Source: a virus | Virus record (IMG/VR): IMGVR_UViG_3300012009_000055 | Coordinates: 1-47,265 of that record | Length of the DNA: 47,265 nucleotides | Reading direction: 5' to 3' (one strand) | In this document: one piece after another, positions 2,458 to 46,879 of the stretch | Position numbering within the stretch: the first letter of the stretch is position 1 | How the letters are laid out: each line of letters begins with the position of its first letter | Made by a program: the position numbers and the translations under genes | The notes under the pieces: model-generated | Seen by the model: the letters and a program-made list of their open reading frames with translations, nothing else | Database searches by the model: none | What the model was told of the DNA's origin: nothing

Positions 2458-2675
2458 ACTTGGAGGAGAAGGAGGTGGAAAAACTCCACCACAAAGCCGA
2501 TAAGCTGAGAAAAGAACTGGCCTATTTCTCGGAGGAAATTCTTGAGGAGATGAGACTGCGAATTCACTTCACGGTCGGGACGGGAGGAGATTTAGACGAC
2601 ATTTTGCGGGTGTTTTCAGATGACTTAAGAGAATATGACGAGCTTATGAGCAAACGATTTGAGTCGATAAAATAA
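2454..2675 (+). CDS. Small helical hypothetical protein
   Basis: This 73-residue protein (MNLEEKEVEKLHHKADKLRK...) begins with a probable coiled coil, then a Gly-rich turn (TVGTGGDLDD) and a second acidic helix. Its start overlaps the preceding stop as ATGA. The first copy of the dispersed dyad begins ten bases before its stop codon (2665-2683), so the dyad overlaps the gene end. No family is recognised. Confidence 0.7.
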   Translation: MNLEEKEVEKLHHKADKLRKELAYFSEEILEEMRLRIHFTVGTGGDLDDILRVFSDDLREYDELMSKRFESIK

Positions 2676-2683
2676 TTTTATCG
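2665..2683. promoter_or_regulatory. Dispersed 19-bp dyad, site 1
   Basis: CGATAAAATAATTTTATCG is a perfect dyad of 8-base arms around TAA. It is one of eight CRATAAA-N5-TTTATYR sites in the genome. It overlaps the end of the gene at 2454 and lies 22 bases upstream of the gene at 2705. It is probably an operator-type protein-binding site; the binding protein is unknown. Confidence 0.65.
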
Positions 2684-2704
2684 CCTAAAGAGAGAGCGGA
2701 GATT

Positions 2705-2977
2705 ATGTTAAACGAATCGGTAACGGTTAAAATTGTGGAGATGAAAATTCCCATAAAAGTTACGCTTAGAACGTGGGCTCAAAATGGGCTGCCACAAAAG
2801 CTGTGGGATCCTCCCGAAGGGGAGGAGCTCACAGAGGCGGTTCGGTTGGAGATTAACGGAACTGTTTTGGACCTGGAGGAATATAGGATCCCAAATCACA
2901 TTAAGGCGATGTTTACAAACGTGATTATTGATGAGGTCAATGAGCAGGTTGAGAAAGGAGCTGAAAATGACGCTTAG
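2705..2977 (+). CDS. Hypothetical protein, paralogue of its downstream neighbour
   Basis: This 90-residue beta-rich protein (MLNESVTVKIVEMKIPIKVT...) contains LWDPPEGEELTE, then EINGTVLDLEEYRIP, then a C-terminal helix DEVNEQVEKG. The same order (MDPPEGVEVTE, EFDGSALDFELPQIP, EEVRGQVEG) occurs in the next gene, so the pair arose by tandem duplication. The site GAGCGGAGATTATG is good. The family is not recognised. Confidence 0.75.
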   Translation: MLNESVTVKIVEMKIPIKVTLRTWAQNGLPQKLWDPPEGEELTEAVRLEINGTVLDLEEYRIPNHIKAMFTNVIIDEVNEQVEKGAENDA

Positions 2978-3272
2978 GTATCCAGCAAAGAAGGGGCAGT
3001 TCACGGAAGAGGAAACCGTGGGGATTCAGGTAACTTTGAATGTCCGGATCAAAAAGACGACCAACATTACCTTCCAAGCATCACTCATGGACCCTCCCGA
3101 AGGCGTGGAAGTTACTGAACTGTCAGAGATTGAGTTTGACGGGAGTGCTTTAGATTTTGAGCTCCCACAGATTCCGGCTAGAAATGAAGACAGGGACAGG
3201 GATAAGCTCCAACTTATGGAGGCAATTATCGAAGAAGTAAGAGGACAAGTGGAGGGAGAAGACTTCATCTAA
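2967..3272 (+). CDS. Hypothetical protein, second member of a paralogous pair
   Basis: This 101-residue protein starts at ATG 2967 (MTLRYPAKKGQF), eleven bases inside its upstream paralogue, with GAAAGGAG as ribosome site. It keeps the DPPEG motif, the D/E-G-(T/S) strand motif and the C-terminal (E)EVxxQVE helix. Relative to its paralogue it has an inserted Arg/Asp run (NEDRDRDK). A strong terminator follows six bases after the stop, so it closes the first early operon. The function is unknown. Confidence 0.75.
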   Translation: MTLRYPAKKGQFTEEETVGIQVTLNVRIKKTTNITFQASLMDPPEGVEVTELSEIEFDGSALDFELPQIPARNEDRDRDKLQLMEAIIEEVRGQVEGEDFI

Positions 3273-3277
3273 GAACG

Positions 3278-3310
3278 AGAGGGCGGCTCGATTGGGTCGC
3301 CCTCTTTTTT
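3278..3310 (+). terminator. Rho-independent terminator
   Basis: AGAGGGCG (3278-3285) pairs with CGCCCTCT (3298-3305), with a 12-base loop, and the stem runs into six Ts. It sits six bases after the stop at 3272 and would end the first early transcript. Confidence 0.9.
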
Positions 3311-3321
3311 ATGGAGATCAA

Positions 3322-3393
3322 ATGGATCTGATTCCTGATTGGGTGTTGATTACGGTGCTAATTGTCACAATAATAATCGAGATAATAACATAG
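3322..3393 (+). CDS. Possible 23-residue membrane peptide
   Basis: ATG 3322 has GGAG at a short distance (GGAGATCAAATG) and opens a 23-codon frame: MDLIPDWVLITVLIVTIIIE then IIT. It is almost entirely hydrophobic and would span a membrane once. It sits alone between a terminator and the next gene. Small single-span peptides are common in phages, as lysis or exclusion factors, but nothing here fixes a role. Confidence 0.4.
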   Translation: MDLIPDWVLITVLIVTIIIEIIT

Positions 3394-3403
3394 GAGGGAG
3401 AAA

Positions 3404-3970
3404 ATGGCCGCAACCAATATGAGCAAGCTTTTCTATTCTTACCTAAGAGATTATGCAAATTTGAAGGGAGTCTCCGTCTCCGAGCTATGCCGGAGGGCGG
3501 TGATCCAACAATATAAGGATCAAACTCCCATCCCAATCCCCTCCGAGGATTGGATGAGAAAAACAAAAGGGGAGCGTCCCCACACGCTCAAATATAACCT
3601 AAGGGATGAGCATGAGATCCTCTTGTGGGCCGAGGGGGAGGGAATCCTCATCACTGAGCTAACGAGGAGGGGATTGTGGGCTCAGCTCCAGGGGGAGGAA
3701 TTTAATCCATCGAAATTTGAGAGAAAATACACCTCAAACGGATTATCTCGGGAAAGGGCGATCCCCTTCAAACTGAGGAAGAAGAAACGATTCTGTCGAG
3801 ACTGCGGGAAGGAGTTGAAGATCAATTATTTCTTCTGTGATGAGTGCTTTTACAGGAGGAATAATCTGGATGAAACGGAGTCCTCAATTATCGAAGTCTC
3901 CCCATTGGATGAACACGCTGTGGCTGAATGGTCAGTCCAGGGGGTCTCCATTGGGTCACTGTGGGGATAA
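3404..3970 (+). CDS. Putative regulator: two ribbon-helix-helix-like segments plus a zinc ribbon
   Basis: This 188-residue protein has an N-terminal segment LFYSYLRDYANLKGVSVSEL followed by CRRAVIQQY, the helix-helix pattern of RHH DNA-binding proteins. A second similar segment (LLWAEGEGILITELTRRGL) lies near residues 73-91. A zinc ribbon follows, CRDCGKELKINYFFCDEC at about 130-147, then an acidic tail. The site TAGGAGGGAGAAAATG is strong. It is the best candidate in the window for a sequence-specific regulator of the repeated dyads, which is inference. Confidence 0.6.
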   Translation: MAATNMSKLFYSYLRDYANLKGVSVSELCRRAVIQQYKDQTPIPIPSEDWMRKTKGERPHTLKYNLRDEHEILLWAEGEGILITELTRRGLWAQLQGEEFNPSKFERKYTSNGLSRERAIPFKLRKKKRFCRDCGKELKINYFFCDECFYRRNNLDETESSIIEVSPLDEHAVAEWSVQGVSIGSLWG

Positions 3971-3994
3971 AGGAGGGAGAAATGAGGTGCTTAT

Positions 3995-4722: not shown

Positions 4723-5796
4723 ATGGAGAATCGAAGATCATTAAGAGGTGGGAGCTGGACTAGCCTTGATGGATACTGTCGATCAGAGTTCTGTGGTTGG
4801 GGCTCCGCTGGTAGCAGAATGACAAATCAGGGTTTCCGAGTGGCTAAGGATAAACTTTTGGGAAGAAAGGATTTTGACATGAGAATCATTCCAGAGGGAA
4901 TTCTTGAGAGAAATGGGGAGAAGATTGTGATCCCTACGTTTAAGATGTGTAAATATCCAGTGACGAATCGGGAATACGCCATGTTCCTTGGGGATAATCC
5001 CAAGCTGAAAGAGCCGAAACTTTGGAACCTCACCGCATTTAACCACCCAGATCAACCTGTCGTCGGAGTCTCCTGGTTTGAAGCCATGGCTTATGCTAAA
5101 TGGGCGGGTGGGCGATTGCCTACCTCGAATGAATGGGAATACGCTTGTCGAGCTGGGACGACAACTCGATTTTACACAGGGGATTCGGAGGCGGATCTCG
5201 ACCGGGCTGGATGGTTTGTAGGAAATTCAGATGGGAAACTTCATCAGGTCGGTCAAAAGGAGCCCAACGCTTGGGGTCTTTATGATATGCACGGTAATGT
5301 CTGGGAGTGGTGTGATGAAGAGAAGTCCTTCGATCCCATGATTGATTATGTAACCTGTCATGGCGGGAGTTTTCGGGAGTATAATAATTTCTGCCAATCT
5401 AACTCCAGTCATAATCTCGAAGCTGATGCCGACGATATGGGGATAGGTTTCCGGGTGGCTAAGGAGAATGAGGGATGGGGAAAATATCCAAAACCTATAG
5501 AGAATTTCCCACAAAGCGGTGATCTCCCAAAGAGATTCCGTCACGAATGTCCTGATTATTACAAGCTCCCACGTCTGGCTTGGGAGTTGAACGACGTAAT
5601 CTCAGGGCTGCCATATAACAGGGCTACGGCGATTGCGTATATCTTCAGGGCTGAAGCGAAAACTGATGAAACCACTGAGCGAGGGAGATTAGAAGATGGG
5701 ATTAAGGACCTTGAGAAAGCGATTAACCATCTCGAAATGGAGCTGGAGGAAATGCGTCTACGTCGCGACGATTTGCTTTGGAATCATCTGCGTTAA
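4723..5796 (+). CDS. FGE-fold protein with an extra N-terminal FGE tail module and a DUF3310-like C-terminus
   Basis: Residues about 52-247 are a formylglycine-generating-enzyme/sulfatase-modifying-factor domain: MCKYPVTNREY, VVGVSWFEAMAYAKW, GGRLPTSNEWEYACRAG, GLYDMHGNVWEWC, then HGGSF to GFRVAK. Residues 8-42 are a second copy of that last element (RGGSW to GFRVAK, same 35-residue spacing) placed at the N-terminus. Residues about 276-341 (CPDYY, LPYNRATAIAYIFRAEAK, LEDGIKDLEKAINHLE) resemble DUF3310, seen in phage proteins often labelled nucleotide kinase. One catalytic Cys of true FGE is missing in both copies (Ser or Glu instead), so ligand binding is more likely than oxidase activity. 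The site is GAGGGAGGATTAG. No reverse transcriptase is present. Confidence 0.8.
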   Translation: MENRRSLRGGSWTSLDGYCRSEFCGWGSAGSRMTNQGFRVAKDKLLGRKDFDMRIIPEGILERNGEKIVIPTFKMCKYPVTNREYAMFLGDNPKLKEPKLWNLTAFNHPDQPVVGVSWFEAMAYAKWAGGRLPTSNEWEYACRAGTTTRFYTGDSEADLDRAGWFVGNSDGKLHQVGQKEPNAWGLYDMHGNVWEWCDEEKSFDPMIDYVTCHGGSFREYNNFCQSNSSHNLEADADDMGIGFRVAKENEGWGKYPKPIENFPQSGDLPKRFRHECPDYYKLPRLAWELNDVISGLPYNRATAIAYIFRAEAKTDETTERGRLEDGIKDLEKAINHLEMELEEMRLRRDDLLWNHLR

Positions 5797-6765: not shown

Positions 6766-6794
6766 TTGACATAAACATACATAAATGATATTAT
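6766..6794 (+). promoter_or_regulatory. Near-consensus sigma-70 promoter for the DNA-metabolism block
   Basis: TTGACA (6766-6771) and TATTAT (6789-6794) have a 17-base spacer. Transcription would start near 6801, giving a ~110-base leader before the gene at 6909. The leader contains one of the dispersed dyads (6868-6886), well placed to act as an operator or roadblock. Confidence 0.85.
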
Positions 6795-6867: not shown

Positions 6868-6886
6868 GAATAAATTTATTTTATCG
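6868..6886. promoter_or_regulatory. Dispersed 19-bp dyad, site 2
   Basis: GAATAAATTTATTTTATCG matches the dyad consensus on the reverse strand (CGATAAAATAAATTTATTC). It lies about 70 bases downstream of the expected start of the 6766 promoter and 22 bases before ATG 6909, so a bound protein would block early elongation or initiation. Confidence 0.65.
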
Positions 6887-10774: not shown

Positions 10775-10793
10775 CGATAAAATAAATTTATTG
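10775..10793. promoter_or_regulatory. Dispersed 19-bp dyad, site 3
   Basis: CGATAAAATAAATTTATTG lies just after the terminator and 22 bases before ATG 10816. This is the same distance to a start codon as sites 1 and 2. No clear promoter is visible between terminator and gene, so a role in starting or blocking transcription here is possible. Confidence 0.65.
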
Positions 10794-11365: not shown

Positions 11366-12038
11366 AAGCGAGTGCCCAAAACCAGAACGGTGGTTTGAAG
11401 AAGGTGGGCAATGCGGATGGGCACATGAGTGCAAGAATTGCTCAAACAATCCATTCAAGGCTAAGGAGGAGGGAGCTAAAATGACAGATAAAGAGGAATT
11501 GCTTACATTATGCCCTGTGTGTAGACGGTTGGTGCTTGAGTCTGAGCTTAAAGAACAGATCATGTGCCTCAACTGCCGACAACACGAAGCGAAAATAGAA
11601 CGTCTTGCGGAATATGCACATCGAGCCTGGAGTTCGTGGATGGAATACTTATTCTCCAAACGCATCCCCTATGCCCCAGATGGGTTCCAAGCTGAGACTG
11701 ACGCCTTAGTCATCCCTAAAGAGGAGGTTGAGCGATGGACCCGACAGATGATGACGGCCTACAAGAGTCTGTCTGAAAAAGAACGTTGGCTTGATCGGCA
11801 GGAAGCGAATAAGATTATAAGAGTAATTGGTTATGGAGGTGGCGAGGAAAAGCTGTCGGATGAAGCGAACAAATATGAACGCGTCATGGAGTCCGTGGCA
11901 GGATTACTTTTTCACACCCTGGAGGTTGAGGAAGATCCTGATCCGCCAGTTTATACCGTTGCAGCAGATGATATTATCCAATTGCGTGACGCCTATCAAG
12001 AGGCAGCGGGATGGGAGAAGGAGGATGAAAATGCTTGA
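11355..12038 (+). CDS. Phage protein with Cys-rich N-terminus and a conserved ERWxRQM domain
   Basis: The 227-residue frame has three parts. Residues 1-43 hold CPKPERWFEEGGQCGWAHEC and a further Cys. From about 50, CPVC and CLNC suggest a zinc ribbon. Residues about 90-150 carry WSSWMEYLFSK, EVERWTRQMMTAY and LSEKERWLDRQEANKII, the core of a widespread phage family of unknown function. A strong internal site (GGAGGAGGGAGCTAAA) precedes ATG 11481, so a shorter form starting MTDKEELL may be the main product, with the first 42 codons a fused small gene. The C-terminal ~70 residues are unrecognised. Confidence 0.7.
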   Translation: MKDKSECPKPERWFEEGGQCGWAHECKNCSNNPFKAKEEGAKMTDKEELLTLCPVCRRLVLESELKEQIMCLNCRQHEAKIERLAEYAHRAWSSWMEYLFSKRIPYAPDGFQAETDALVIPKEEVERWTRQMMTAYKSLSEKERWLDRQEANKIIRVIGYGGGEEKLSDEANKYERVMESVAGLLFHTLEVEEDPDPPVYTVAADDIIQLRDAYQEAAGWEKEDENA

Positions 12039-12306
12039 AATCTCAATAGCTGAGTATAAAAACCTTTCCCCCAATGAGCAGGCGGAAATCGCTAATGGGG
12101 ATGATGATTTGTATCTTCGTGTCAGACATAACCACGTAACAATACTACTTGAATCCGACTATTTTGAGCCGGAAGATGTATCATTTAGTCGTGACTTGAG
12201 TTGGGTACCTAAGATAATTCGTAAAGTTTATAATCTTGGCAGGTTAGATGAAAAGCTTAGAATAATACTGAGTGATTACAAAGAGGGAGATGAAAATGCG
12301 TCTTGA
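12031..12306 (+). CDS. Small acidic hypothetical protein
   Basis: This 91-residue protein (MLEISIAEYKNLSPNEQAEI...) starts at ATG 12031 with GGAGGATGAAA upstream and overlaps both neighbours by a few bases. It is rich in Asp and Glu and ends SDYKEGDENAS. I do not recognise a family; it is probably co-translated with the gene before it. Confidence 0.65.
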   Translation: MLEISIAEYKNLSPNEQAEIANGDDDLYLRVRHNHVTILLESDYFEPEDVSFSRDLSWVPKIIRKVYNLGRLDEKLRIILSDYKEGDENAS

Positions 12307-12538: not shown

Positions 12539-13891
12539 ATGGCTATGAAATTTGAGCGCATTGCATTGGATAAGATAGACATGGCAGAACGTTTCAGATC
12601 CGACCTGGGCGATTTGACCGCCTTAACCGATGCATATAAGAAGGGGAAGATCCTCCAGCCTCCTGGGGTTAAACCCGTGGAGAATGGATACGAGATAGTC
12701 TTTGGCGGTCGTCGGTATGAGGCGGCAAAGCTCGCTGGTAGGGAGGAGATAACCTGTCGTGTCCTCGATGGGATGGATGCTTATGAGACGAGAATGGTGG
12801 AGCTGGCTGAGAATATTGACCGAAAACAGATGACTCCACTGGAGAAGATGAAACTTCAGGCAGAAATTCATCGCCTTTACCAGATAAAGTTTGGCTCGGG
12901 AGACGCGAACACACCTGGGCACACAATTAAGGACACGGCGAAAACGTTGGGGAGGACCCCGGCTTCCATTGGGAATGACCTTAAGATCTATGAGAAGGTG
13001 TCTCAACTCCCTGAGGGGATCCAAGCGACCCTGAACACCGTTGAGAAGAAGAGTGACATAGAGAAGTTTTTGCGCGACGCTGAGAGAGACGCCAAGCGCC
13101 AGATTGGGATTGACAAGGCGCGACAGGATCTCACAGCCGAGGGTCCTGGGGTCAAACAAAGATTGATTGACTCTTATCGGGTGGAGGATTTTGGAGAGGC
13201 TGAGATTGAAGGGCCTTTTCAAATTGTCGAGTTCGATCCACCTTATGCGATTGACATTATTGAGTTGAGGAAACAGAGCAGAACCTCGACATCAATCGGT
13301 GACAATTTTTACACCGACCTTGATGCTCAAACATACATAGATTGGATGCTGGAGAAACTCCACAAAATCTGGACTCTGATGGATAACGACGGATGGCTCA
13401 TCTTGTGGCAATCTCAGGAGTGGATGCCAATCTTCTTCGGCTTCAACCCTGGGAATATAGACGCCCCCAAAAAGACGGTTAAGAGATTAAAAGGTGGGCT
13501 CCTCCGGGAGGTCGGATTCAAGGTTCCTCAAACAATGGGGATGTGGGATAAGGCCAAGGGTCAGACCACCAATCCTAACTTTGTCCTCGGCTCCTCCTAT
13601 GAGTGTTTCATTTACGCTCGGAAGGGGAAGGCTGAAATCCAAAGACACGTCAACAATGTCTTCCGCCACACAGGTGGGGAAAAACTCCACACAGCTCAGC
13701 GCCCCTTGTCACTGATCCAGGATATCTTAACCGTTTTCGGCCATGAGGGTCAACGTGTCCTCTGTCCCTGCGCTGGATCAGGGATAACAATTATTGCCGC
13801 ACATCTTTGTCAGATGTCATGTGAGGCCTTCGACATTGTCCCAGAGTTTAAGGATAATTTCCATTACCTCGTTCAGAAGTATATCCAATAG
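12539..13891 (+). CDS. ParB-like domain fused to a DNA methyltransferase
   Basis: Residues 1-100 are a ParB/Srx-type N-terminal domain (FGGRRYEAAKLAGREEITCR, then ENIDRKQMTPLEK). Residues about 125-165 form a helix-turn-helix (IKDTAKTLGRTPASIGNDLK). The C-terminal half is an amino-methyltransferase: motif IV DPPY at 233-236 comes before the SAM-binding motif I PCAGSGIT at about 410-417, the order of beta-class N6-adenine or N4-cytosine enzymes. It may modify phage DNA against host restriction, with the ParB part directing it. TAGGAGACGATT is the ribosome site. Confidence 0.85.
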   Translation: MAMKFERIALDKIDMAERFRSDLGDLTALTDAYKKGKILQPPGVKPVENGYEIVFGGRRYEAAKLAGREEITCRVLDGMDAYETRMVELAENIDRKQMTPLEKMKLQAEIHRLYQIKFGSGDANTPGHTIKDTAKTLGRTPASIGNDLKIYEKVSQLPEGIQATLNTVEKKSDIEKFLRDAERDAKRQIGIDKARQDLTAEGPGVKQRLIDSYRVEDFGEAEIEGPFQIVEFDPPYAIDIIELRKQSRTSTSIGDNFYTDLDAQTYIDWMLEKLHKIWTLMDNDGWLILWQSQEWMPIFFGFNPGNIDAPKKTVKRLKGGLLREVGFKVPQTMGMWDKAKGQTTNPNFVLGSSYECFIYARKGKAEIQRHVNNVFRHTGGEKLHTAQRPLSLIQDILTVFGHEGQRVLCPCAGSGITIIAAHLCQMSCEAFDIVPEFKDNFHYLVQKYIQ

Positions 13892-17708: not shown

Positions 17709-17982
17709 ATTACTCCACCTCCTCTTCTGTGACCGCCCTCATGCAGATGATCCCATTTTACTCACTAAAAAAAATTTATCGAGTAAATGTCTTTACTGGC
17801 TGGAGGAGTCACTGGCGGATACTTGGGAACAGGAGGAACACGCAAAATGGCTGGCCCTCGCCGAAGCTGTCGATAAATTAGCTAAAGAGAAAGGGCAGAA
17901 TATCTATAGCATAATGATCAAGCTAAAAGATTACGCTGCCCTTCGGTACATGTTGGAGGATTATCTATCCATTATCGAATAG
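17689..17982 (+). CDS. Hypothetical helical protein, last gene of the plus arm
   Basis: This 97-residue protein (MLKRHAELLHLLFCDRPHAD...) is mainly helical. GAGGTGATTAAAT upstream of ATG 17689 lies inside the previous gene, with a 20-base overlap. Site 4 of the dispersed dyad lies within it. It ends inside the 3' end of the convergent virion arm with no terminator between. No family is recognised. Confidence 0.7.
   Translation: MLKRHAELLHLLFCDRPHADDPILLTKKNLSSKCLYWLEESLADTWEQEEHAKWLALAEAVDKLAKEKGQNIYSIMIKLKDYAALRYMLEDYLSIIE
17763..17781. promoter_or_regulatory. Dispersed 19-bp dyad, site 4 (one mismatch)
   Basis: CACTAAAAAAAATTTATCG has a perfect right half (TTTATCG) and one mismatch in the left half. 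It lies inside the last plus-arm gene, about 200 bases before the point where the two arms converge. Confidence 0.45.
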
Positions 17983-29812: not shown

Positions 29813-31146
29813 TATGGTCTGTCCAATCCAAAGTTGATAAGCATGGCACATTTTTGGGGGAAATGAAATTCCAACCCGGCCTCGGTTAGATATTCCTCCT
29901 TCTTGCCGTCGATCCGACCATGACCAGTATTCTGTTTGGTCTGCTCTGGGAAGAAGTCCGTATCGTGAATATACCGATAACGAAGGTCTGTCGGATCGAA
30001 GACAATCATTGTCCGCGCATTCGTCGGCTCATAAGACAGAAGCGGATGGGTGATCAGGTCCACAGACCCAAAGGGAGTGACCCACTCGTGGACGTTAAAC
30101 CCAAAAGCTTTCGTCTTTGTCGTAATCTCAAACCGTGTGGTGGGAGAGTTCTTGACGAGCTGGTTGATAGCCAACAGCGTCAGATACCCAACAAACCCCA
30201 CACGGGAGTCTTTCCCATACCGGAAGACCTGAGCCAGCCACCAATCCAACCATTCCCCACCCAGGTCTTCCCAATCACCGGTGGCAGGGAGGCCCACAGC
30301 AGTGTCCGTCAGAAAATCCGAGATGTTATTCGAATAGCTTCGGATAAAGGGGACAAGCCCGCCAGTAGTCCGTTCAGGATTCCCATTCGTCCCAATCCGT
30401 CGCGATCTGACGCTCCACAGGTAATTCTTCTCCTGCTCAACAGAGTGCATCTCCAGGGCCTCCCTCTTTGCCTCAGCATACGCCTGAGGCCCACGCATCC
30501 GCGTCTCAAGCGCCGTCCGAGTCAACTCCAAGGGAGTGCGGAAGATCTGAGTGTAATTCCAAAACTCCGTCGGATCATACGCCAACGCCGCAGGCATTGC
30601 CCCGCCTTCAGGATTGACGTTCCCATTGATGAGGATCCGATCAGCATCCGAAAGATCCCCAGTCACACCATTATCATCTGCCTCGAGCAGGAGGACACCA
30701 ATCACGGAATTAGCACCAGATGTGACAACACTTGTGACCTTCGCGTTCACATCCACCAAGACATCCGTGGTGGAGCGGAGGAGACACTGATGTCCAGCTC
30801 GAAAATGTGCAGCTGTCTCCTGATCCACATTCACATAAAGGGGTGTTTCAAAGACCCCACCACCAGCATAAGGTGTGGTCATTGCCGGATCCACATAAAT
30901 GTTGGTGATGGGCCCAGCCTGTGTCGGCAGGGATTTCGTCCACCAATGAAACCGAGGATCATCAACCGCCTCCGACTTCATCATGGACATCATAGCGGTT
31001 AGGGGAGCATCTCCATTCGGATACATATAGAGATACATCTCCCTCCAGTTCATGGGCCGTAAAGTCCCAGTCCCAGATACCCAAGTTGCGGTATCAGGAT
31101 CGTACTTCATCCAGTCTTGTGTCGATCTACTTCCCAAAAATGGCAT
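29812..31146 (-). CDS. Major capsid protein, HK97 fold
   Basis: The 444-residue protein has an N-arm (residues 1-50), an E-loop-like region with Pro/Gly turns, and a spine helix pattern RTPLELTRTALETRMRGPQA followed by EAKREALEMHSVEQEKNYLW, typical of DUF5309-type and related HK97-fold capsid proteins. The C-terminal part (TKTKAFGFNVHEWVTPFGSV, then ATLEFHFPQ-type strands) resembles the A-domain. GAGGAGAATTTGTT precedes the start, and a dispersed dyad lies just upstream. It should be the most abundant late protein. Confidence 0.8.
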   Translation of the reverse strand: MPFLGSRSTQDWMKYDPDTATWVSGTGTLRPMNWREMYLYMYPNGDAPLTAMMSMMKSEAVDDPRFHWWTKSLPTQAGPITNIYVDPAMTTPYAGGGVFETPLYVNVDQETAAHFRAGHQCLLRSTTDVLVDVNAKVTSVVTSGANSVIGVLLLEADDNGVTGDLSDADRILINGNVNPEGGAMPAALAYDPTEFWNYTQIFRTPLELTRTALETRMRGPQAYAEAKREALEMHSVEQEKNYLWSVRSRRIGTNGNPERTTGGLVPFIRSYSNNISDFLTDTAVGLPATGDWEDLGGEWLDWWLAQVFRYGKDSRVGFVGYLTLLAINQLVKNSPTTRFEITTKTKAFGFNVHEWVTPFGSVDLITHPLLSYEPTNARTMIVFDPTDLRYRYIHDTDFFPEQTKQNTGHGRIDGKKEEYLTEAGLEFHFPQKCAMLINFGLDRP

Positions 31147-31159: not shown

Positions 31160-31178
31160 CAATAAAATAATTTTATCA
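31160..31178. promoter_or_regulatory. Dispersed 19-bp dyad, site 5, upstream of the capsid gene
   Basis: CAATAAAATAATTTTATCA fills the short gap between the stop of the small head gene (31180) and the capsid start (31146). It is the only dyad of the late arm in an intergenic position, 13 bases from the capsid ATG, and would be ideal for controlling capsid expression. Confidence 0.65.
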
Positions 31179-35490: not shown

Positions 35491-36708
35491 TTACGTTGTC
35501 GCGGTCACGGTCCATCCCCGGACATTTCTGAGATTGTCCAACGCCGCCAAACCATCAATGCCTGTCACTGTCCCATCAGTAGGCGCTTCGTTATTGCCTG
35601 AGATATCGAGGATTCCATCCTCAACGCCAGTTTCGTTTAGGTCGTGCAGGAAGGTATCGACTGTCAATGCGATCCAAGATAGGTCGTAAATTCGATTGTC
35701 GCCATCATTCCAGAATGTCATTGTGTTTGTGTAAGATACCGAAGTGTTGTACAAGTACAAAATCGTTAGGCGCGTCAATGCGCTAAATCCAGAAATATCA
35801 CCAGATATCGAAGTATTATACGAATTCAAGCGCGATAGGCTCGTCAATGCGCTAAATCCAGAAATATCACCTGAGACCGAAGTGTCTCCCAAGTACAATC
35901 GAGTTAGGCTCGTCAGGGCGCTAAATCCAGAAATATCACCTGAGACCGAAGTATTGTCCAAGCGCAAGTACGTTAGATTTGTCAATGCGCTAAATCCAGA
36001 AATATCACCTGAGACCGAAGTATTGTGCAAGTACAAGACCGTCAGGCTCGTCAAAGCACTGAATCCAAAAATATCACCTGAGACCGAAGTGTTGTGCAAG
36101 TGCAAGTGCGTCAGGCTCGTCAAAGCACTGAATCCAGAGACGTCACCAGATATCGAAGTGTCTCCCAAGTACAATCGAATTAGGCTCATCAAAGCACTGA
36201 ATCCAGAAATATCACCAGTTACAGATGTGTTGTACAAGCGCAAAACCGTCAGGCTCGTCAAAGCACTAAATTCAGAGATGTCACCTGAAACCGATGTGTT
36301 GTGCAAGTACAATCGAGTTAGGCTCGTCAGGGCGCTAAATCCAGAAATATCACCTGAGACCGAAGTATTGTGCAAGTACAATCGAATTAGGCTCATCAAA
36401 GCACTAAATTCAGAGATGTCACCTGAAACCGATGTGTTGTGCAAGTGCAAGACCGTTAGGCTCATCAATGCCGCCAGATCCGTACAATCGCCATCTATGC
36501 TAACGTCTTCGTTAAGATCAATTTCCGTAACATGCTCATCGCTAACCGTGATGCCATCCATCGCCCCAGCAGTATCGCCGAAATCCCAGGTGTAGTTTGC
36601 CCAGTTCGGGCCGTCAGTAGCTTCCCAGAAGGCAAGTAAGGCATCGGCTTCGTCTTTAGGGATGTCCGTCGGTGTCCATATGGATTTGCTACAATTCCTC
36701 CAAAACAT
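35491..36708 (-). CDS. Leucine-rich-repeat tail/adhesion protein
   Basis: The 405-residue protein has an LRR N-cap like that of bacterial and plant LRR proteins (EADALLAFWEATDGPNWANY, then VTEIDLNED at 60-68). Residues 81-310 are ten full 23-residue repeats of the form LTSLTRLYLHNTSVSGDISG + FSA, with a partial eleventh. A C-terminal cap ends ALDNLRNVRGWTV. At DNA level the repeats are nearly identical 69-base units, prone to gain and loss. LRR solenoids bind proteins or glycans. In a fibre cluster this is a strong candidate receptor-binding or surface-display protein. AAGGGTGATTAA precedes the start. Confidence 0.8.
   Translation of the reverse strand: MFWRNCSKSIWTPTDIPKDEADALLAFWEATDGPNWANYTWDFGDTAGAMDGITVSDEHVTEIDLNEDVSIDGDCTDLAALMSLTVLHLHNTSVSGDISEFSALMSLIRLYLHNTSVSGDISGFSALTSLTRLYLHNTSVSGDISEFSALTSLTVLRLYNTSVTGDISGFSALMSLIRLYLGDTSISGDVSGFSALTSLTHLHLHNTSVSGDIFGFSALTSLTVLYLHNTSVSGDISGFSALTNLTYLRLDNTSVSGDISGFSALTSLTRLYLGDTSVSGDISGFSALTSLSRLNSYNTSISGDISGFSALTRLTILYLYNTSVSYTNTMTFWNDGDNRIYDLSWIALTVDTFLHDLNETGVEDGILDISGNNEAPTDGTVTGIDGLAALDNLRNVRGWTVTATT
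35779..36468 (-). repeat. Ten tandem 69-bp coding repeats (LRR array)
   Basis: Ten consecutive 69-base units encode the LRR repeats, with a partial eleventh down to about 35725. Differences fall mainly at the solvent-exposed x positions (for example HN, YN, GD, DN before TSV). Such an array can expand or contract by recombination and reassort specificity. Confidence 0.85.
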
Positions 36709-36712: not shown

Positions 36713-37186
36713 TCACCCTTGAATGTTTAAGAAGTTGACCCATTCATCAAGTCCTGATGTAATCTCGGGCAGATAAATAGTTTTGATAGGCACCCAGTCG
36801 GAATCCAAAGCGGTATCTGATACTTCAACAACCATTTCCCGGGGATGATGATTAGTAGGATTGAGATATAATCGAAAAGAACCTACTGTAACCGCAGACC
36901 CGAAATAAGCCCTCCACCATTGCGGCCTGGTGCCGGACAGAGACAACCAAAAAGTAGTTAGATCATCATCAATCGCATTTTCTGTATAATGTGGAGGAGT
37001 AACACGACTGGCTGATGCAGAAGAAACTGGAATTTTTGTACCAGATAAATCAGAAGACTCGAAAAATTCAGCCTCATAAATTAAGACTTTATACAAACCG
37101 GCATACGAGAGATCCGTCGCCCGCAGTCTCAAATATGATCCTGACCCATCTGAAACAACCTCCTTCTTACACCACTTCCACAACAT
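36713..37186 (-). CDS. Discoidin (F5/8 type C)-like carbohydrate-binding protein
   Basis: The 157-residue protein is one galactose-binding-like domain: YAGLYKVLIYEAEFFES, SSASASRVTPPHYTENAIDD, then TTFWLSLSGTRPQWWRAYFG (the usual D-x-xTxW-x-S element and WxxxxFG strand) and SFRLYLNPTNHHPREMVVEV. The fold commonly binds sugars or lipid head groups. Its start overlaps the DUF4376-like gene stop by one base, and its stop lies five bases before the LRR start, so the products may form one tail-tip assembly. Confidence 0.75.
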   Translation of the reverse strand: MLWKWCKKEVVSDGSGSYLRLRATDLSYAGLYKVLIYEAEFFESSDLSGTKIPVSSASASRVTPPHYTENAIDDDLTTFWLSLSGTRPQWWRAYFGSAVTVGSFRLYLNPTNHHPREMVVEVSDTALDSDWVPIKTIYLPEITSGLDEWVNFLNIQG

Positions 37187-37770
37187 TAGAAGCCCTCCTT
37201 CAGATAAAGCGCATGACTCCGAAGCTCATCCACCGTCTGCATCTCCTCCAGGAGAGCTGTGAAATTCCAGTAATTCTCCATCACCCCATACCAATACTCA
37301 TAAACCGCCAGGTGATATTCCTCAACCTTCGTCCCAGAGACGTGATAATTGCGGTTATCCCTGGATCTCAATAAATAAATTTTATCAGGTTTTGCGGCTA
37401 TAGATGCCCCAGTCAACCTGGAGAGAGATTCGTCATCTGTGGCCAGGCGGATATCGTCCACCACAACCCCCTGATCCAACGCCCTTCTCATCTCCCGTCG
37501 GGCGTCTTCCCAAAGCTTAACCTTAATCTCCTCAATCGGGAGATCCACCGCCGGCCTTACGACATAAATTCCGTCGATATAAGCCTCTCCATGACGCTGA
37601 AACATCTCAAGTTCCTCGTCTCGAACCTCATAAATCCCATACTTCGACATCAGTTCAGCCCGGGATCCATGAGGATTCGACACTTTAAGCCCATTAGCCA
37701 ACGTAATGGCCCTCGGCAGTGTCGCATAAAATCGTTGGACAAACCCATTTACCACATGTGCATATCTCAT
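37186..37770 (-). CDS. DUF4376-like tail protein
   Basis: The 194-residue protein has a short fibre-like N-terminus (MRYAHVVNGFVQRFYATLP), a linker, and a C-terminal domain resembling DUF4376: IEEIKVKLWEDARREMRRAL, GVVVDDIRLATDDESLSRLT, and a long final helix (TALLEEMQTVDELRSHALYL). Such proteins are usually fibre-associated or assembly factors in phages. A dispersed dyad (site 6) lies inside the gene. It follows the fibre gene at 37771 without a gap. Confidence 0.65.
   Translation of the reverse strand: MRYAHVVNGFVQRFYATLPRAITLANGLKVSNPHGSRAELMSKYGIYEVRDEELEMFQRHGEAYIDGIYVVRPAVDLPIEEIKVKLWEDARREMRRALDQGVVVDDIRLATDDESLSRLTGASIAAKPDKIYLLRSRDNRNYHVSGTKVEEYHLAVYEYWYGVMENYWNFTALLEEMQTVDELRSHALYLKEGF
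37369..37387. promoter_or_regulatory. Dispersed 19-bp dyad, site 6
   Basis: CAATAAATAAATTTTATCA lies inside the DUF4376-like gene, about 180 bases upstream of the discoidin-like gene start. Its match to the consensus inside a coding frame, where it encodes DKIYLLR, suggests the site is maintained for binding. Confidence 0.55.
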
Positions 37771-43170: not shown

Positions 43171-44823
43171 TTAGATTAGATAATGTTGCTCAGGATAACT
43201 CTCATTCTTCAACATGGCAAAGTCATCCTCATCGTCCATAAAGACATCAGACACGGGCTCGAAGTTTATCCCCGAACTATCCATGACATAAATAACCTGG
43301 GATAAGGCATCGATGACGTCAACGAGAGCTCCATTTGGGAAGGTCATCAATTGGCTCTCAAGTTTCGCCGAATTATTCGGGTTGTGATAGAAATAACCTT
43401 GGTGATAGAGAGGGGAGAGTTGGAGGATCCGATCCTCCTTATTCCCTCTCGCATGAACCTCGAGCAATCGAACGTTCATGTTGAATCGCCGAGCTAAGGC
43501 CTCGATGGGACCTTTGATGTACTCGTGGAGAGAGGTAGTCTCATAAGCCACGAGGTTTGCCTTAAATTGTGTTGCTGAGAAAAAGGCCCGTCTTAGGAAT
43601 TCATCAGGTTTAAACTTCCCAGCAATCACATCCCGGACAAAGATTTTGTGAGCTTTCGTGTGAACCGAAACGCAAACAGCTGCCGAGTCATCAGCCGTCT
43701 CTTTCGTCGTTTTCGCCGGATCCAACAAAACCATGGTGAAAAGCTCGGAGACTGGGATGACAGGAGCTGGGTTGGAGGGCTCAATTCCCGTGAGATTCAC
43801 CTCACGTCTCTCGGAGACATCTTGCCTTTTCCTAACCGCTAAAGTCTCCTTCGCCCGAGGGGAGAGATAAAAGGGTCTTAAATGCGAGCCCTCTTCAGCG
43901 AAATAGTTGAAAGATTCGGGAGGAAAAGGTTGCCCTTCTGTCGACATGGGGAGGTTTCGATACTCACGGAAGAAGGTGTCTAATTGCCCAGCAGATTTAT
44001 GAGCCTCATATTCCTTCTTTATCTCCTCTGCGTCCATATATTCAGGGGCGGTTGGTTGAAGATTGTCATCACAGGCTTCGAGGGTGACCGACATCCAATC
44101 CTCTGAATCCATATTCCGACGAAGGAGAGAGTCTTCGTGTTTCAAGGTGTCGATATACACCATGCGATAATCTTTCTCATACCGGGAGATGCATTTTGTC
44201 GGCTCCGAGAAAAACCACGTCCGAATCTGCTCCCTCTGTTCCTTCGACCGGAGGAGCTTTCGATCCTCAAGATCGTCGAAAATGATAAGATCGGGACGTC
44301 TTGAACGCCATAAGATCCCTCTGACCTGCTGGCCATATCCACGAGGGAGGACAAGGGTGTTTCCAAAAGCTACCCAAGCGGAGCGGGAGAATTCATCATC
44401 CAACCCCGTTAGCTCCTTCGTGTCGATATCCCCGACGCGGATCGACCCAAACACCTTCCTCACCATGGTGTTGGCGAGGAGCTCACGTTTTAACGACTCG
44501 GTCTGAAGCTCAGCGTGAGTGGAACTGTAAGAGATGAAGACGACAAATCGGGTCTCACGGAAGAGAATCTTCCTGGCGAGATATCCATAAAGGACGATTG
44601 AGGTTTTCCCAAATCCTCGAGGGGCTGCGATATTAACTTTCTTAGCGAGGGAGTCGAGAGCGGTGCAGACTTTGAGATGAAGATTAGGAGAGAATGGGGC
44701 AGGGAAGATTTCAGGGAAAAAGACTTTCGCCATAACATCCGAGCGAATCATGGATAATGAGATGAGGCGATCAAGTTCCGCATCCCCACTCAATAAATTA
44801 TTTTTATCGAGATTATCCCTCAT
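43171..44823 (-). CDS. Terminase large subunit
   Basis: The 550-residue packaging motor has Walker A APRGFGKTS at residues 67-75 and Walker B DLIIFDDLED at 178-187, with acidic residues at the end. A C-terminal RNase H-like nuclease follows: D368 in VLLDPAKTT, an acidic pair (DDSA) about ten residues on, E in AYETTSLHEY and D near 508 in VDVIDAL. It cuts and translocates phage DNA through the portal. It overlaps the small subunit gene by eleven bases. Confidence 0.92.
   Translation of the reverse strand: MRDNLDKNNLLSGDAELDRLISLSMIRSDVMAKVFFPEIFPAPFSPNLHLKVCTALDSLAKKVNIAAPRGFGKTSIVLYGYLARKILFRETRFVVFISYSSTHAELQTESLKRELLANTMVRKVFGSIRVGDIDTKELTGLDDEFSRSAWVAFGNTLVLPRGYGQQVRGILWRSRRPDLIIFDDLEDRKLLRSKEQREQIRTWFFSEPTKCISRYEKDYRMVYIDTLKHEDSLLRRNMDSEDWMSVTLEACDDNLQPTAPEYMDAEEIKKEYEAHKSAGQLDTFFREYRNLPMSTEGQPFPPESFNYFAEEGSHLRPFYLSPRAKETLAVRKRQDVSERREVNLTGIEPSNPAPVIPVSELFTMVLLDPAKTTKETADDSAAVCVSVHTKAHKIFVRDVIAGKFKPDEFLRRAFFSATQFKANLVAYETTSLHEYIKGPIEALARRFNMNVRLLEVHARGNKEDRILQLSPLYHQGYFYHNPNNSAKLESQLMTFPNGALVDVIDALSQVIYVMDSSGINFEPVSDVFMDDEDDFAMLKNESYPEQHYLI
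44791..44809. promoter_or_regulatory. Dispersed 19-bp dyad, site 7
   Basis: CAATAAATTATTTTTATCG lies within the first codons of the large terminase gene, where it encodes LDKNNLL. The site could regulate late transcription or be a packaging-linked signal. Only its similarity to the other sites is seen. Confidence 0.55.
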
Positions 44824-45229
44824 CGACTACAAACCCCGCAGCCACAGCATTCGCCTTTAATTTCATAATGTCATCTCCGGTCAAGATTGCGTGTCGGCCC
44901 CTGACATTAACATTACTGTTTTGCCCATAACCTCCCACACTCAAGAGCCCAAATGCCGTCCTGGCTCGCTGAGAACTCGGACAATCCTCATCATCCAAAT
45001 TCTCCTCCAAAACATCGAGGGCCTTTGGGAGGAGATCCGTCACCCGCTTCATGACATCATAGGTTTCGAGATCATCTTTCCCCTGAAGCACCTGGACATG
45101 CCGCTGGACAACCGGCGAGTTCCGAACATTCGAGACCTGCTGGGCTGAAATCCCTAGGGCCTCCCCAATGCCCTTATTCGACATCCCAAAGGTGACGAGT
45201 CGGGCAATTTGCTGATGCCGATCCCACAT
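44813..45229 (-). CDS. Terminase small subunit
   Basis: The 138-residue product starts at ATG 45229 (MWDRHQQIARLVTFGMSNKG) with a strong GGGAGGTGACGGAG site. Residues 5-45 form a helix-turn-helix (ARLVTFGMSNKGIGEALGIS, then QQVSNVRNSPVVQ). A helical oligomerisation region and a tail (GQNSNVNVRGRHAIL) follow. It recognises the packaging site and hands DNA to the large subunit. An upstream ATG at 45277 would be exactly at the promoter start and leaderless, so it is less likely. Confidence 0.8.
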   Translation of the reverse strand: MWDRHQQIARLVTFGMSNKGIGEALGISAQQVSNVRNSPVVQRHVQVLQGKDDLETYDVMKRVTDLLPKALDVLEENLDDEDCPSSQRARTAFGLLSVGGYGQNSNVNVRGRHAILTGDDIMKLKANAVAAGFVVDEG

Positions 45230-45283
45230 CTCCGTCACCTCCCATCGTCCCTTATCGTTTTTCCGTCTCCCATCCATAATCTC

Positions 45284-45313: not shown

Positions 45314-45343
45314 GAGTAAATTTGAGTAAATTTGAGTAAATGA
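45314..45343 (+). repeat. Three 10-bp GAGTAAATTT units upstream of the late promoter
   Basis: Units are 45314-45323, 45324-45333 and 45334-45343 (the last GAGTAAATGA). The 10-base period puts each on the same face of the helix. The same motif forms a perfect 22-base palindrome at 47187-47208. It is likely an activator or repressor array for the late promoter. Confidence 0.75.
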
Positions 45344-45658
45344 AAAAAATTTGCTCGCAATCTGCGCCCGGGTTAGTCAATAATTAAAACTCGCGCTCCC
45401 CCCTATCGGGTCTCCCTCAGTCGATCAGCTCAATTTGTAACTATTTGATTTTATTGAGTTATTGTTTTTCCACTCGATTATGTCGGAACCATAATAAAAA
45501 CGAGTTTTGAGAAAATGTAATCTTTTATAACTCATTGGATTTATGGTGATTAAAATTTTTTGGCCTTTTGGCACCGGGCTTGCATGACAAATAAATGAAG
45601 TTCGAGCGATACATTATTAACAGCCTTTTGAGGCGCCCCTCTTATCAAGGGGTAAGGA

Positions 45659-45686
45659 TTGACAACACAATACCAATTATTATTTA
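45659..45686 (+). promoter_or_regulatory. Probable promoter for the plus-arm genes at 45817
   Basis: TTGACA (45659-45664) is followed after 16 bases by TATTTA (45681-45686). The -10 box matches only partly. Transcription starting near 45693 would give a ~120-base leader. Confidence 0.6.
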
Positions 45687-45705
45687 TTGGGAGGGATTAA
45701 AGGCC

Positions 45706-45762
45706 ACCTCGAAAAGGTCTAGTTCACCGTATCTGTAAGATAGCGAAGGTGAGCGTTCAGCT
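45706..45762 (+). ncRNA. Possible structured 5' leader
   Basis: Short nested hairpins follow one another: ACCT/AGGT (45706-45718), TCACC/GGTGA (45724-45752) enclosing ATCT/AGAT, and GAGC/GCTC (45751-45762). The last two compete for GA. It precedes the gene at 45817. A switch-like leader is possible, but the stems are short. Confidence 0.3.
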
Positions 45763-45816
45763 CCTTTTCATTGGGGAGGGTTATCATTCAACTCGAACCG
45801 ATGAAAGGATATAGCG

Positions 45817-46422
45817 ATGAAAATCACATCAACGGCTAAAGATATGAAGGGCTTTATCTGTGAGGTTACGGACCTTACGGACGAGGCAGAGCATTGGGAA
45901 AGCGACCGTGACATTATAGTCGAGGCTCTTCACGGGGCATCGGCAAAATCGCTTACAATGACCCTCACGGGCACGGCGATATCGGTTCTCCTGCGAAAGC
46001 CCAAAATGGACAAGTTTCAGGGAACCTTGGAGGAGGCTCTGGCCCAATACTTCACAGCAACCGTGAAAGACACTAAGGCGATTGAGGCAAAGGCCGCTGA
46101 GAAGGCCGAAAAGAGATCCAGACTCAATCACCTGCGATCCATTCAGTCCTTGCTGGGGAAGTCTGACAAGGCCGGGAAGAAGACGGCACTCACGGCTTTC
46201 AGCATCGCATCTGAGAAGGCGCTTAAGGAGGAGATCGAGACCTTAGCAGCCGAGATCGAGCCGAAGGAGGAGACTGTCTCAAAGTCTATCGGGGAAATGG
46301 TCAATTATTTGTCCAATCTCCATCCTGAGAAGCAGTCAGATTACTTGAAAATGTCCTCGACTCAATTGAGGGAACTGGTCGAGGCCGAGACCAAAAACGA
46401 CGAGACCAAAAACGAGGCATAG
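45817..46422 (+). CDS. Hypothetical early protein with charged coiled coil
   Basis: The 201-residue protein begins with a compact alpha/beta part (MKITSTAKDMKGFICEVTDL, then SLTMTLTGTAISVLLRKPKM). A Lys/Glu/Ala-rich coiled coil (AKAAEKAEKRSRLNHLRSIQ) and an acidic tail with TKND/TKNE repeats follow. ATGAAAGGATATAGC precedes the start. It is the first gene of the plus arm after its own promoter. The function is unknown. Confidence 0.7.
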   Translation: MKITSTAKDMKGFICEVTDLTDEAEHWESDRDIIVEALHGASAKSLTMTLTGTAISVLLRKPKMDKFQGTLEEALAQYFTATVKDTKAIEAKAAEKAEKRSRLNHLRSIQSLLGKSDKAGKKTALTAFSIASEKALKEEIETLAAEIEPKEETVSKSIGEMVNYLSNLHPEKQSDYLKMSSTQLRELVEAETKNDETKNEA

Positions 46423-46445
46423 AATTTTAATCTAATAAGAACGAC

Positions 46446-46502
46446 CCTCTCCAATGAAAAGGGGCTGATTTAAGGAAAGATTTCCCTCCTTCATTGGGGA
46501 GG
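46446..46502 (+). promoter_or_regulatory. Long leader hairpin before the gene at 46521
   Basis: The arm at 46446-46464 pairs with 46484-46502 over 19 positions with about four mismatches (core CCAATGAA with TTCATTGG). The same core recurs at 45768-45779 and 46760-46779. The ribosome site of the next gene lies just outside the stem, so it may set translation or RNA processing. Confidence 0.55.
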
Positions 46503-46520
46503 CTCCCGAGGGAGGAGATT

Positions 46521-46736
46521 ATGCGGTTAAGATTTATCCTAAACGAGCTTGAGACCTTGGATGATAATGCGCTTAAAGTCTTAAGACTCCGTATTGAGAA
46601 AATCGAACGAGAAAGATTAAATGAGACTTCAGAGGAGACGGCTAAGAAAAGAGTGGAGGAACTTGCGAAAAGATTAAGGAGATTGAATCCTTCGTTGGTC
46701 CCGTTCCTCAAGGAGATTCCAGACGATAACAATTAA
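46521..46736 (+). CDS. Small helical hypothetical protein
   Basis: The 71-residue protein (MRLRFILNELETLDDNALKV...) is nearly all charged helix (LRIEKIERERLNETSEETAK) with a short Pro-containing end. GAGGGAGGAGATT gives an excellent site for ATG 46521. It lies in the plus arm upstream of the junction and is probably early. No family is recognised. Confidence 0.7.
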   Translation: MRLRFILNELETLDDNALKVLRLRIEKIERERLNETSEETAKKRVEELAKRLRRLNPSLVPFLKEIPDDNN

Positions 46737-46860
46737 GATAACCTTTTAACGAAGGGGAGCCTTCTCAATGAAAGAGGGGAAATCGGATCCGAAGGGGTCA
46801 ATTCTCGGTTGCGGAACTATAAAGCGAGGCGCTCGGAGGGTTCCTTAAAAATGGATGAGA

Positions 46861-46879
46861 CAATAAATTTATTTTATTG
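46861..46879. promoter_or_regulatory. Dispersed 19-bp dyad, site 8
   Basis: CAATAAATTTATTTTATTG matches the consensus in both halves and is nearly a perfect palindrome. It lies in non-coding DNA between the last plus-arm gene before the junction and the iterons. Confidence 0.65.

What the first reader, a model, noticed from the sequence alone, without database searches (positions are those of the whole stretch)
2665..46879. Eight dispersed 19-bp dyads, CRATAAA-N5-TTTATYR: a possible genome-wide operator or stoperator set
Sites at 2665, 6868, 10775, 17763 (one mismatch), 31160, 37369, 44791 and 46861 share two 7-base half sites in mirror order. Three (2665, 6868, 10775) end exactly 22 bases before a start codon, one fills the gap before the capsid gene, and one lies just downstream of a promoter. 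The spread over both arms resembles mycobacteriophage L5 stoperators, where one repressor silences the whole genome, but no known repressor gene is visible here.
Basis: partly seen in the sequence, partly recalled or inferred. Interest (0 to 1): 0.76.

Follow-up and report, generated by a model that had tools for sequence, protein, structure and literature searches.

The report
Phage-wide docking sites for ParB-methyltransferase
The nine scattered mirror-image DNA sites in this virus of bacteria are almost certainly docking sites for one of its own proteins, a chromosome-partition-type (ParB-like) DNA-binding protein fused to a DNA-methylating enzyme, and its relatives carry the same arrangement with different but matching site sequences, so the unknown job of these fused proteins can now be tested.

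Summary
The stoperator reading is not supported. All 29 examined genomes with a close homolog of the window's ParB-like/HTH/N6-N4-methyltransferase fusion (12539-13891) carry their own odd-centred dyad at 7-21 evenly spaced places; G008, the one of 28 long relatives without the fusion, has none. Three distant phages with diverged fusions show no odd-centred set. The site follows the fusion's recognition helix: residue 141 predicts base -6 (His G, Gln A, others T) in 29 of 29 training genomes and 31 of 35 later loci; two of the four misfits are Arg with G, as in ParB. On a methyltransferase-domain tree 11 of 11 base changes coincide with residue-class changes, 0 of 2000 shuffles. Residue 141 corresponds to ParB/Noc residue 173, where Arg reads G and Gln reads A. 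So these are parS-like sites for the ParB-methyltransferase. Likely role, inferred: loading points for a nucleotide-gated clamp carrying the methyltransferase along the genome. Rivals: KorB-like silencing; genome organisation.

The parts
12539..13891 (+). ParB-like / HTH / N6-N4 DNA methyltransferase fusion (450 aa): inferred binder of all the dyads
   Evidence: Pfam ParB_N residues 22-93, N6_N4_Mtase 228-438; PHROG ParB-like and DNA methyltransferase; homolog in 27 of 28 long relatives
12602..12817 (+). ParB_N nucleotide-binding module, residues 22-93, with the GGRR box (56-59) and ENxxR box (91-95)
   Evidence: R58, R59, E91, N92, R95 invariant in 63 of 63 aligned proteins
12923..13003 (+). 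helix-turn-helix, residues 129-155; recognition helix 141-155, specificity residue P141 at 12959-12961
   Evidence: AlphaFold2 model m8d43cc104bac, helices 130-137 and 141-155, block pLDDT 90 or more; covariation with base -6
13220..13852 (+). N6/N4 DNA methyltransferase domain, residues 228-438, DPPY and GSG motifs
   Evidence: D233 and G413-S414-G415 in 63 of 63; best solved relative N4-cytosine methyltransferase 8s9n/8s9o
2665..2683 (.). dyad site 1 (centre 2674)
6868..6886 (.). dyad site 2 (centre 6877), 73 bases after the -10 box of a promoter-like match 6766-6794
10775..10793 (.). dyad site 3 (centre 10784)
17763..17781 (.). dyad site 4 (centre 17772), near the meeting point of the two convergent arms
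31160..31178 (.). dyad site 6 (centre 31169), in the gap before the capsid gene 29812-31146 (-)
37369..37387 (.). dyad site 7 (centre 37378), inside ORF 37186-37770
44791..44809 (.). dyad site 8 (centre 44800), at the terminase small/large subunit gene junction
46861..46879 (.). dyad site 9 (centre 46870)
869..895 (.). weak possible tenth site (centre 882, score 19.9 against 27.5-32.7 for the others), before the ATG at 910

Best explanation
The dyads are parS/NBS-like recognition sites for the phage's own ParB-like/HTH/DNA-methyltransferase fusion (12539-13891). SHOWN by sequence: each of the 29 examined genomes with a close homolog of this protein has its own evenly spaced set of odd-centred dyads, and the dyad base at position -6 changes when residue 141 at the start of the recognition helix changes, by the code measured for ParB/Noc residue 173. 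INFERRED: a dimer lands on a dyad; with bound nucleotide (CTP or ATP) the ParB-type module closes into a clamp and slides onto neighbouring DNA; sites at mean spacings of 2.4-6.9 kb let clamps cover the whole genome; the fused methyltransferase is thereby concentrated on phage DNA and methylates it, marking or protecting it. Sub-confidences: the fusion binds the dyads 0.93; sites are clamp-loading points rather than static operators 0.6; the purpose is genome-wide methylation 0.4.
For: Own odd-centred dyad family in 29 of 29 genomes with a close homolog (motif score 117-492) against 51-93 in 9 others and at most 66 in Markov nulls, 3 per genome; G008, the only one of 28 long relatives without the fusion, scores 78 (absence confirmed by profile search). 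Residue 141 against base -6: training His to G 7 of 7, Gln to A 2 of 2, other to T 19 of 19, the single Arg T 0.68/G 0.27; later loci His to G 5 of 6, Gln to A 3 of 3, Arg to G 2 of 2, other to T 23 of 24. With L222's residue supplied, 11 of 11 base changes fall on branches with a residue-class change, 0 of 2000 shuffles. Experimental code R173-G1, Q173-A1 (PMC7383237, passages). The HTH segment has the highest correlation with motif distance of 12 protein segments, 0.615, partial 0.48. Even spacing and nucleotide-binding residues invariant in 63 of 63 favour loading over static binding. Catalytic residues conserved. Site-bearing gaps show no promoter enrichment, 0.35 against 0.31.
Against: No binding, sliding or methylation was measured. 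Misfits: L232 (His with T), L190 (Pro, mixed A/G/T), G014 (Arg with T 0.68); below the motif cut L189 (His with T) is also against. In the column scan over ten proteins DNA polymerase column 23 (12 residue types) fits base -6 slightly better, adjR2 0.94 against 0.92, and capsid distance follows motif distance almost as well as the HTH, 0.577. Three distant phages with diverged full-length fusions have no odd-centred set: L084, L088, and L085, which has an even-centred one. G008 is one case and may be incomplete (no end repeat). Sites peak 20-35 bp before start codons, which operators could also do; by my crude ORF caller 5 of the window's 10 sites are inside genes.
Confidence: 0.82

Rival explanations
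1. KorB-like global transcription control: the same protein binds the same dyads, but its purpose is to silence or time phage transcription, as static operators/roadblocks or by sliding to promoters; the methyltransferase is secondary.
For: KorB of RK2 is a ParB-family CTP clamp that acts from operators up to more than 1 kb from promoters (PMC11790492, passages). Sites cluster 20-35 bp before start codons (140 of 277 co-directional sites). One window site lies 73 bases after a promoter-like match.
Against: Two of the three best promoter-like matches in the parts scanned (272-300 and 45312-45284) have no strong site within about 450 bp. No sigma-70 enrichment at site gaps. 48 of 417 sites are in convergent gaps and 74 inside genes by a crude ORF caller. 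Spacing is more even than random.
Confidence: 0.27
2. Genome organisation: the dispersed sites let the ParB module bridge, condense, segregate or package phage DNA (Noc- or centromere-like), with methylation as a side activity.
For: Even coverage of the genome; the first 200 residues match Noc best among solved structures; Noc nucleates at sites scattered over a chromosome (PMC8429893, passages).
Against: No ParA over cut-off in 30 of 30 genomes. The usual C-terminal dimerisation domain is replaced by a methyltransferase whose catalytic residues are conserved. No integrase in 30 of 30.
Confidence: 0.18
3. L5-type stoperators/operators for a lysogeny repressor, possibly the RHH/Zn-ribbon protein 3404-3970.
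For: Number, dispersal and co-variation of sites with a phage protein resemble cluster A stoperators (PMC6550527, passages).
Against: Symmetric sites; no integrase; a repressor-type HTH_3 passes cut-off in 1 of 30 genomes; 3404-3970 has no tblastn relative in 37 genomes; covariation points to the ParB-methyltransferase.
Confidence: 0.02
4. Sites for a host regulator, or AT-rich chance palindromes.
For: In the window alone the core is AT-rich.
Against: Relatives of 34-52% GC have different dyads tied to a phage-encoded helix; chance excluded.
Confidence: 0.01

Closest known systems
Noc / NBS sites (Bacillus nucleoid occlusion)
   Same: ParB-type nucleotide-binding module plus HTH; best solved relative of the first 200 residues; scattered palindromic sites; Gln at the specificity position reads A (passages)
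   Different: Here a DNA methyltransferase follows the HTH; sites are odd-centred, 23-27 bp rather than 16 bp, and the protein is phage-encoded
KorB / OB operators of plasmid RK2
   Same: ParB-family protein with operators near and far from promoters on a mobile element, acting as a CTP sliding clamp (PMC11790492, passages)
   Different: KorB works with KorA at promoters; no promoter association found here; that KorB has no methyltransferase is recalled
ParB-CTPase/N6-N4 methyltransferase fusions of phages (PMC12704722)
   Same: Same domain pair, reported as frequent in phages; role open, anti-defence suggested; bacterial SAM-methyltransferase fusions bound ATP (passages)
   Different: The passages read mention no cognate DNA site for the methyltransferase fusions; here a genome-wide site set and its recognition residue are identified
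Mycobacteriophage L5 stoperators
   Same: Dispersed sites whose sequence differs between relatives together with the binding protein (PMC6550527, passages)
   Different: Oriented with transcription and bound by a lysogeny repressor, asymmetric (PMC9283540, title only); not so here

Membership tests
ParB/Noc nucleotide-clamp family | ParB_N fold with GxRR (box II) and ENxxR (box III) | tested here: met
   Pfam PF02195 over cut-off; R58, R59, E91, N92, R95 in 63 of 63
ParB/Noc nucleotide-clamp family | HTH reading a palindromic site with the position-173 code | tested here: met
   covariation only, no binding assay; the 141-to-173 correspondence is by the G-K-S-x motif, aligned by eye
ParB/Noc nucleotide-clamp family | C-terminal dimerisation domain | tested here: not met
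   residues 228-438 are a methyltransferase and end near the C terminus
ParB/Noc nucleotide-clamp family | CTP (or other NTP) binding and sliding | not testable with these tools
   needs biochemistry
ParABS partition system | ParA ATPase partner | tested here: not met
   PF13614 over cut-off in 0 of 30 genomes; one sub-threshold fragment in G010
KorB-type global regulator | operators associated with promoters | tested here: inconclusive
   sigma-70-like score in site gaps 0.35 against 0.31 without site; other promoter types not covered, and KorB also acts at a distance
KorB-type global regulator | co-repressor such as KorA | not tested
   no search made
L5 stoperators | asymmetric site oriented with transcription | tested here: not met
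   dyads are palindromic
L5 stoperators | temperate phage with immunity repressor | tested here: not met
   integrase PF00589 0 of 30; HTH_3 over cut-off in 1 of 30; other integrase or repressor types not searched
N6/N4 DNA methyltransferase | DPPY and SAM-binding motifs | tested here: met
   PF01555 over cut-off; D233 and G413-S414-G415 in 63 of 63, P234 60, P235 61 and Y236 62 of 63

The most novel reading that the evidence does not exclude
A DNA methyltransferase targeted by genome identity rather than by a short recognition sequence alone: a ParB-type clamp is loaded at 7-21 evenly spaced phage-specific sites and carries the methylase along the phage genome, marking phage but not host DNA. 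The docking code diversifies between related phages, so each phage would mark only its own genome.
Probability: 0.35. Interest if true: 0.93.

Novelty: new variant of a known kind. Interest (0 to 1): 0.8.

Why it matters
ParB-methyltransferase fusions are reported as frequent in phages with no settled function (PMC12704722, passages). Here one family gets a defined DNA target set, a recognition residue and a natural specificity code, so binding, nucleotide use and methylation can each be tested directly. It also provides tens of natural protein-site pairs for studying how ParB-type specificity evolves, and shows that a dispersed palindrome set in a phage need not be a repressor's stoperators.

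Tried and rejected
L5-type stoperators, the RHH/Zn-ribbon protein as binder, host regulator and chance: rejected as given under rivals.

Terminase small subunit (44813-45277, sub-threshold LuxR-type HTH) as binder: no tblastn relative in L001, G001, G002 or G012, which have dyads.

Promoter operators: no sigma-70 enrichment and no conserved flanking element except purine-rich positions where a ribosome-binding site would be.

Unfiltered column scan over ten proteins: too few genomes; many columns of other proteins track the tree, and for most base positions the top column is not in ParB (ParB residue 146 is top for base -7, level with a portal column at 0.75). I therefore rely on the later loci and the tree test.

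First TerL and polymerase scans of viral contigs confirmed no relatives; megablast of 24 kb against the phages collection found none. Rfam: none at gathering threshold. A search for N15-type centromeres listed one unrelated paper; a Noc search none.

Post-hoc choices: the motif-score cut of 60 was set. It dropped 19 of 50 non-redundant loci; among these L189 (His, T) is against the rule and L243, L197 (His, G) are for it, while Arg loci L194, L187 have G. Seeds for G004, G014 and the window were chosen by hand; one search recovered the same motifs without hand seeds. L222's residue was missed by my ORF caller, read by eye and entered by script. By the rule fixed on the training set (His G, Gln A, all else T) 31 of 35 later loci fit; Arg to G is the published ParB code, which I read only after seeing the test output, and counting it gives 33 of 35 but makes G014 a training misfit. 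The 28 long relatives are all but one (L027, 64 kb) of the contigs of at least 42 kb among the best 80 of 166 capsid matches; some are close kin (G020 and G025 have identical HTHs). Two small window ORFs (909-1098, 12035-12306) were entered out of frame in the protein file, so searches did not test them. The combined spacing p-value treats related genomes as independent.
Full report
WHAT IS THERE. The window is a whole virus record of 47,265 bases whose ends share an approximate direct repeat. Two convergent arms meet near 17.9 kb: early/replication genes on +, structural genes on -. Nine dyads RATAAA-N5-TTTATY (one with a mismatch) lie at 2665, 6868, 10775, 17763, 23965, 31160, 37369, 44791 and 46861. 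The eight exact cores compare with a mean of 0.04 in 300 second-order Markov sequences.

THE SAME ARCHITECTURE WITH OTHER SEQUENCES. The closest named relative found, Desulfofustis phage LS06-2018-MD01 (OP947158.1, L001), is colinear: TerL 38%, capsid 44%, polymerase 36% identity. It lacks this motif but has nine copies of its own dyad around TGTCCCAA-N-TTGGGACA. I took 28 relatives of 43-51 kb from viral contigs by their capsid gene and searched each de novo. They are long contigs, not all proven complete: 12 of 28 have an exact end repeat of 20 bases or more. Of the 28, 27 encode a homolog of the window's ParB-methyltransferase. With the window and L001 this makes 29 genomes with a close homolog, and all 29 have a dispersed odd-centred dyad family: summed motif score 117-492, against 51-93 for nine other genomes and at most 66 in Markov nulls. 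Of those nine, G008 and five distant phages have no fusion by profile search, and three distant ones (L084, L085, L088) have a diverged full-length one. G008, the only one of the 28 without the gene, scores 78; it also lacks the PD-(D/E)XK nuclease gene and has no end repeat, so it could be incomplete. Aligned on the centre, the half-sites are variants of one form, for example CTATGTCCCAA (L001), tgyTaTGGTTAAA (G011), AGATCGTTTAAT (G021), AGTTCGATCmAw (G023) and AsyCrATAAAwT (window).

WHICH PROTEIN READS THEM. Among the window genes with relatives in these genomes, the ParB-methyltransferase is the early one found wherever the odd-centred dyads are and that has a sequence-reading HTH. It consists of ParB_N (residues 22-93), an HTH and an N6/N4 methyltransferase (228-438). 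AlphaFold2 (26-row alignment, mean pLDDT 86, pTM 0.61) places helices at 130-137 and 141-155, with residue 141 opening the recognition helix. In the 29 genomes residue 141 follows dyad base -6: His with G in 7 of 7, Gln with A in 2 of 2, other residues with T in 19 of 19; the one Arg genome, G014, has T 0.68 and G 0.27. I then took 80 further ParB-methyltransferase loci (best 80 of 547), kept 50 that were non-redundant and at most 85% identical to the first set, found motifs without using residue 141, and added phage-sized contigs binned into metagenome-assembled genomes. Of the 35 loci with a clear motif (31 of 50, plus 4 of the 6 such contigs scanned), His gave G in 5 of 6, Gln gave A in 3 of 3 (including L222), Arg gave G in 2 of 2 and others T in 23 of 24. 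By the rule fixed on the training set 31 of 35 fit; with the published Arg rule 33. The two that fit neither are L232 and L190. On a tree of the methyltransferase domain alone, base -6 changes 11 times. In the first run 10 of these fell on branches where the residue class changes; with L222's residue supplied it is 11 of 11, reached by 0 of 2000 shuffles. One of the eleven, L190, is a mixed site and does not follow the code's direction. The ParB/Noc literature gives the same code: in the motif G170-K171-S172-R173, Arg173 bonds guanine 1 of parS and Gln173 reads adenine 1 of NBS (PMC7383237, passages). The window reads G138-R139-T140-P141; the correspondence is by motif and eye, because the HMMER alignment to Noc is out of register there.

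LIMITS OF THAT INFERENCE. With 29 genomes many columns of other proteins also correlate with motif columns; for base -6 ParB residue 141 ranks second (adjR2 0.92, 0 of 20,000 permutations) behind a polymerase column with 12 residue types. Over whole distances the HTH segment correlates best with motif distance (0.615, partial 0.48 given core proteins), but the capsid protein is close (0.577, 0.43), and the methyltransferase domain has none left (partial -0.06).

HOW THE SITES ARE PLACED. In the 29 genomes, 414 sites (7-21 per genome) are more evenly spaced than random: gap CV 0.33-0.82 against a random mean of 0.83-0.94. Taken singly, 24 of 29 genomes have p below 0.05 against uniform placement; the other five are G001 0.16, G003 0.11, G006 0.19, G011 0.09 and G017 0.34. 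The combined p of 2e-29 treats genomes as independent, which they are not. 319 of 414 lie outside gene interiors, which make up 88% of these genomes by a crude ORF caller; in the window it is 5 of 10. Of 417 sites 277 are between co-directional genes, 48 in convergent and 18 in divergent gaps, and 74 inside genes. Gaps with a site have median 54 bp, those without 3 bp, so the site is largely the reason for the gap. There is no sigma-70 enrichment (0.35 against 0.31 of gaps) and no strongly conserved flank beyond purine-rich positions before the start codon. In the window the promoter-like matches at 272-300 and 45312-45284 have no strong dyad within about 450 bp; 6766-6794 has one 73 bases downstream.

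HOW IT MOST LIKELY WORKS. Shown: a conserved, evenly spaced dyad set tied by natural covariation to the HTH of the ParB-methyltransferase. Supported: the nucleotide-binding residues (R58, R59, E91, N92, R95) and catalytic residues (D233, G413-S414-G415) are invariant in 63 of 63 proteins, so both activities appear to be under selection. Inferred from ParB, Noc and KorB (PMC8429893, PMC11790492; passages): nucleotide-gated clamp closure and sliding from each dyad. Inferred further: even coverage serves to deliver the methyltransferase along the genome. Which nucleotide is used is open; in PMC12704722 bacterial SAM-methyltransferase fusions bound ATP (passages). The pink-berry study that described MD01 predicts strictly lytic life cycles for its phages, notes orphan N4/N6 methyltransferases and suggests restriction evasion (PMC10370329, passages); a term search of its main text found 'ParB' 0 times.

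AGAINST LYSOGENY. Integrase PF00589 0 of 30; ParA PF13614 over cut-off 0 of 30; HTH_3 over cut-off 1 of 30 (7 of 30 at E 0.001), with the 14 control genomes positive; records may be fragments. In genome contigs 9 loci matched: four are phage-sized contigs (45.6-49.7 kb), four are shorter contigs, and the one on a chromosome (L261) covers residues 183-439 only, mostly the methyltransferase.

BREADTH. The diverged fusion of Vibrio phage VS-ABTNL-3 (L085) goes with a different, even-centred dyad AATTRYRYAATT at eight places (Markov mean 0.05, largest 1; an after-the-fact pattern). L084 and L088 show no clear odd-centred set, nor does L264, 41 kb of a Streptococcus phage whose fusion has no HTH evident by eye.

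NOVELTY. Searches 'ParB methyltransferase phage parS CTP', 'phage ParB-like methyltransferase inverted repeats dispersed' and 'parS-like phage genome ParB methylase' (open-licence PMC only; listings of 6, 15 of 29 and 10 of 33 papers) showed no title or abstract start describing dispersed sites for such a fusion. The parts (ParB clamp, dispersed sites, methyltransferase fusion) are known; their combination and the natural code in phages appear new.

Noticed in passing
window 1-38 and the last ~39 bases: Approximate terminal direct repeat (poly-A length differs by one), suggesting a circular or terminally redundant complete genome.
   Followed up: partly
window 133-195: Five overlapping copies of a GGTTCGGAT-type 9-bp repeat about 80 bp before a perfect TTGACA-17-TATAAT promoter-like match (272-300); looks like an origin or early control region.
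   Followed up: no
window 4723-5796: Protein with an FGE-sulfatase (formylglycine-generating enzyme type) domain in the early arm.
   Followed up: no
window 35491-36708: Leucine-rich-repeat protein in the late arm.
   Followed up: no
L085 positions 28, 3160, 3183, 23224, 32157, 36989, 39923, 42204: Vibrio phage VS-ABTNL-3 has its own even-centred dispersed dyads AATTRYRYAATT and a diverged ParB-methyltransferase.
   Followed up: partly
G014 (pieces L130-L132): Its sites mix two half-site types, TTTGTCAATT and TTTGGTTATT, sometimes in one dyad; possibly a specificity switch under way.
   Followed up: no
G007:C1:36911-37360: A second ParB-like match in a frame of 254 aa, about 6.5 kb from the full ParB-methyltransferase.
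   Followed up: no
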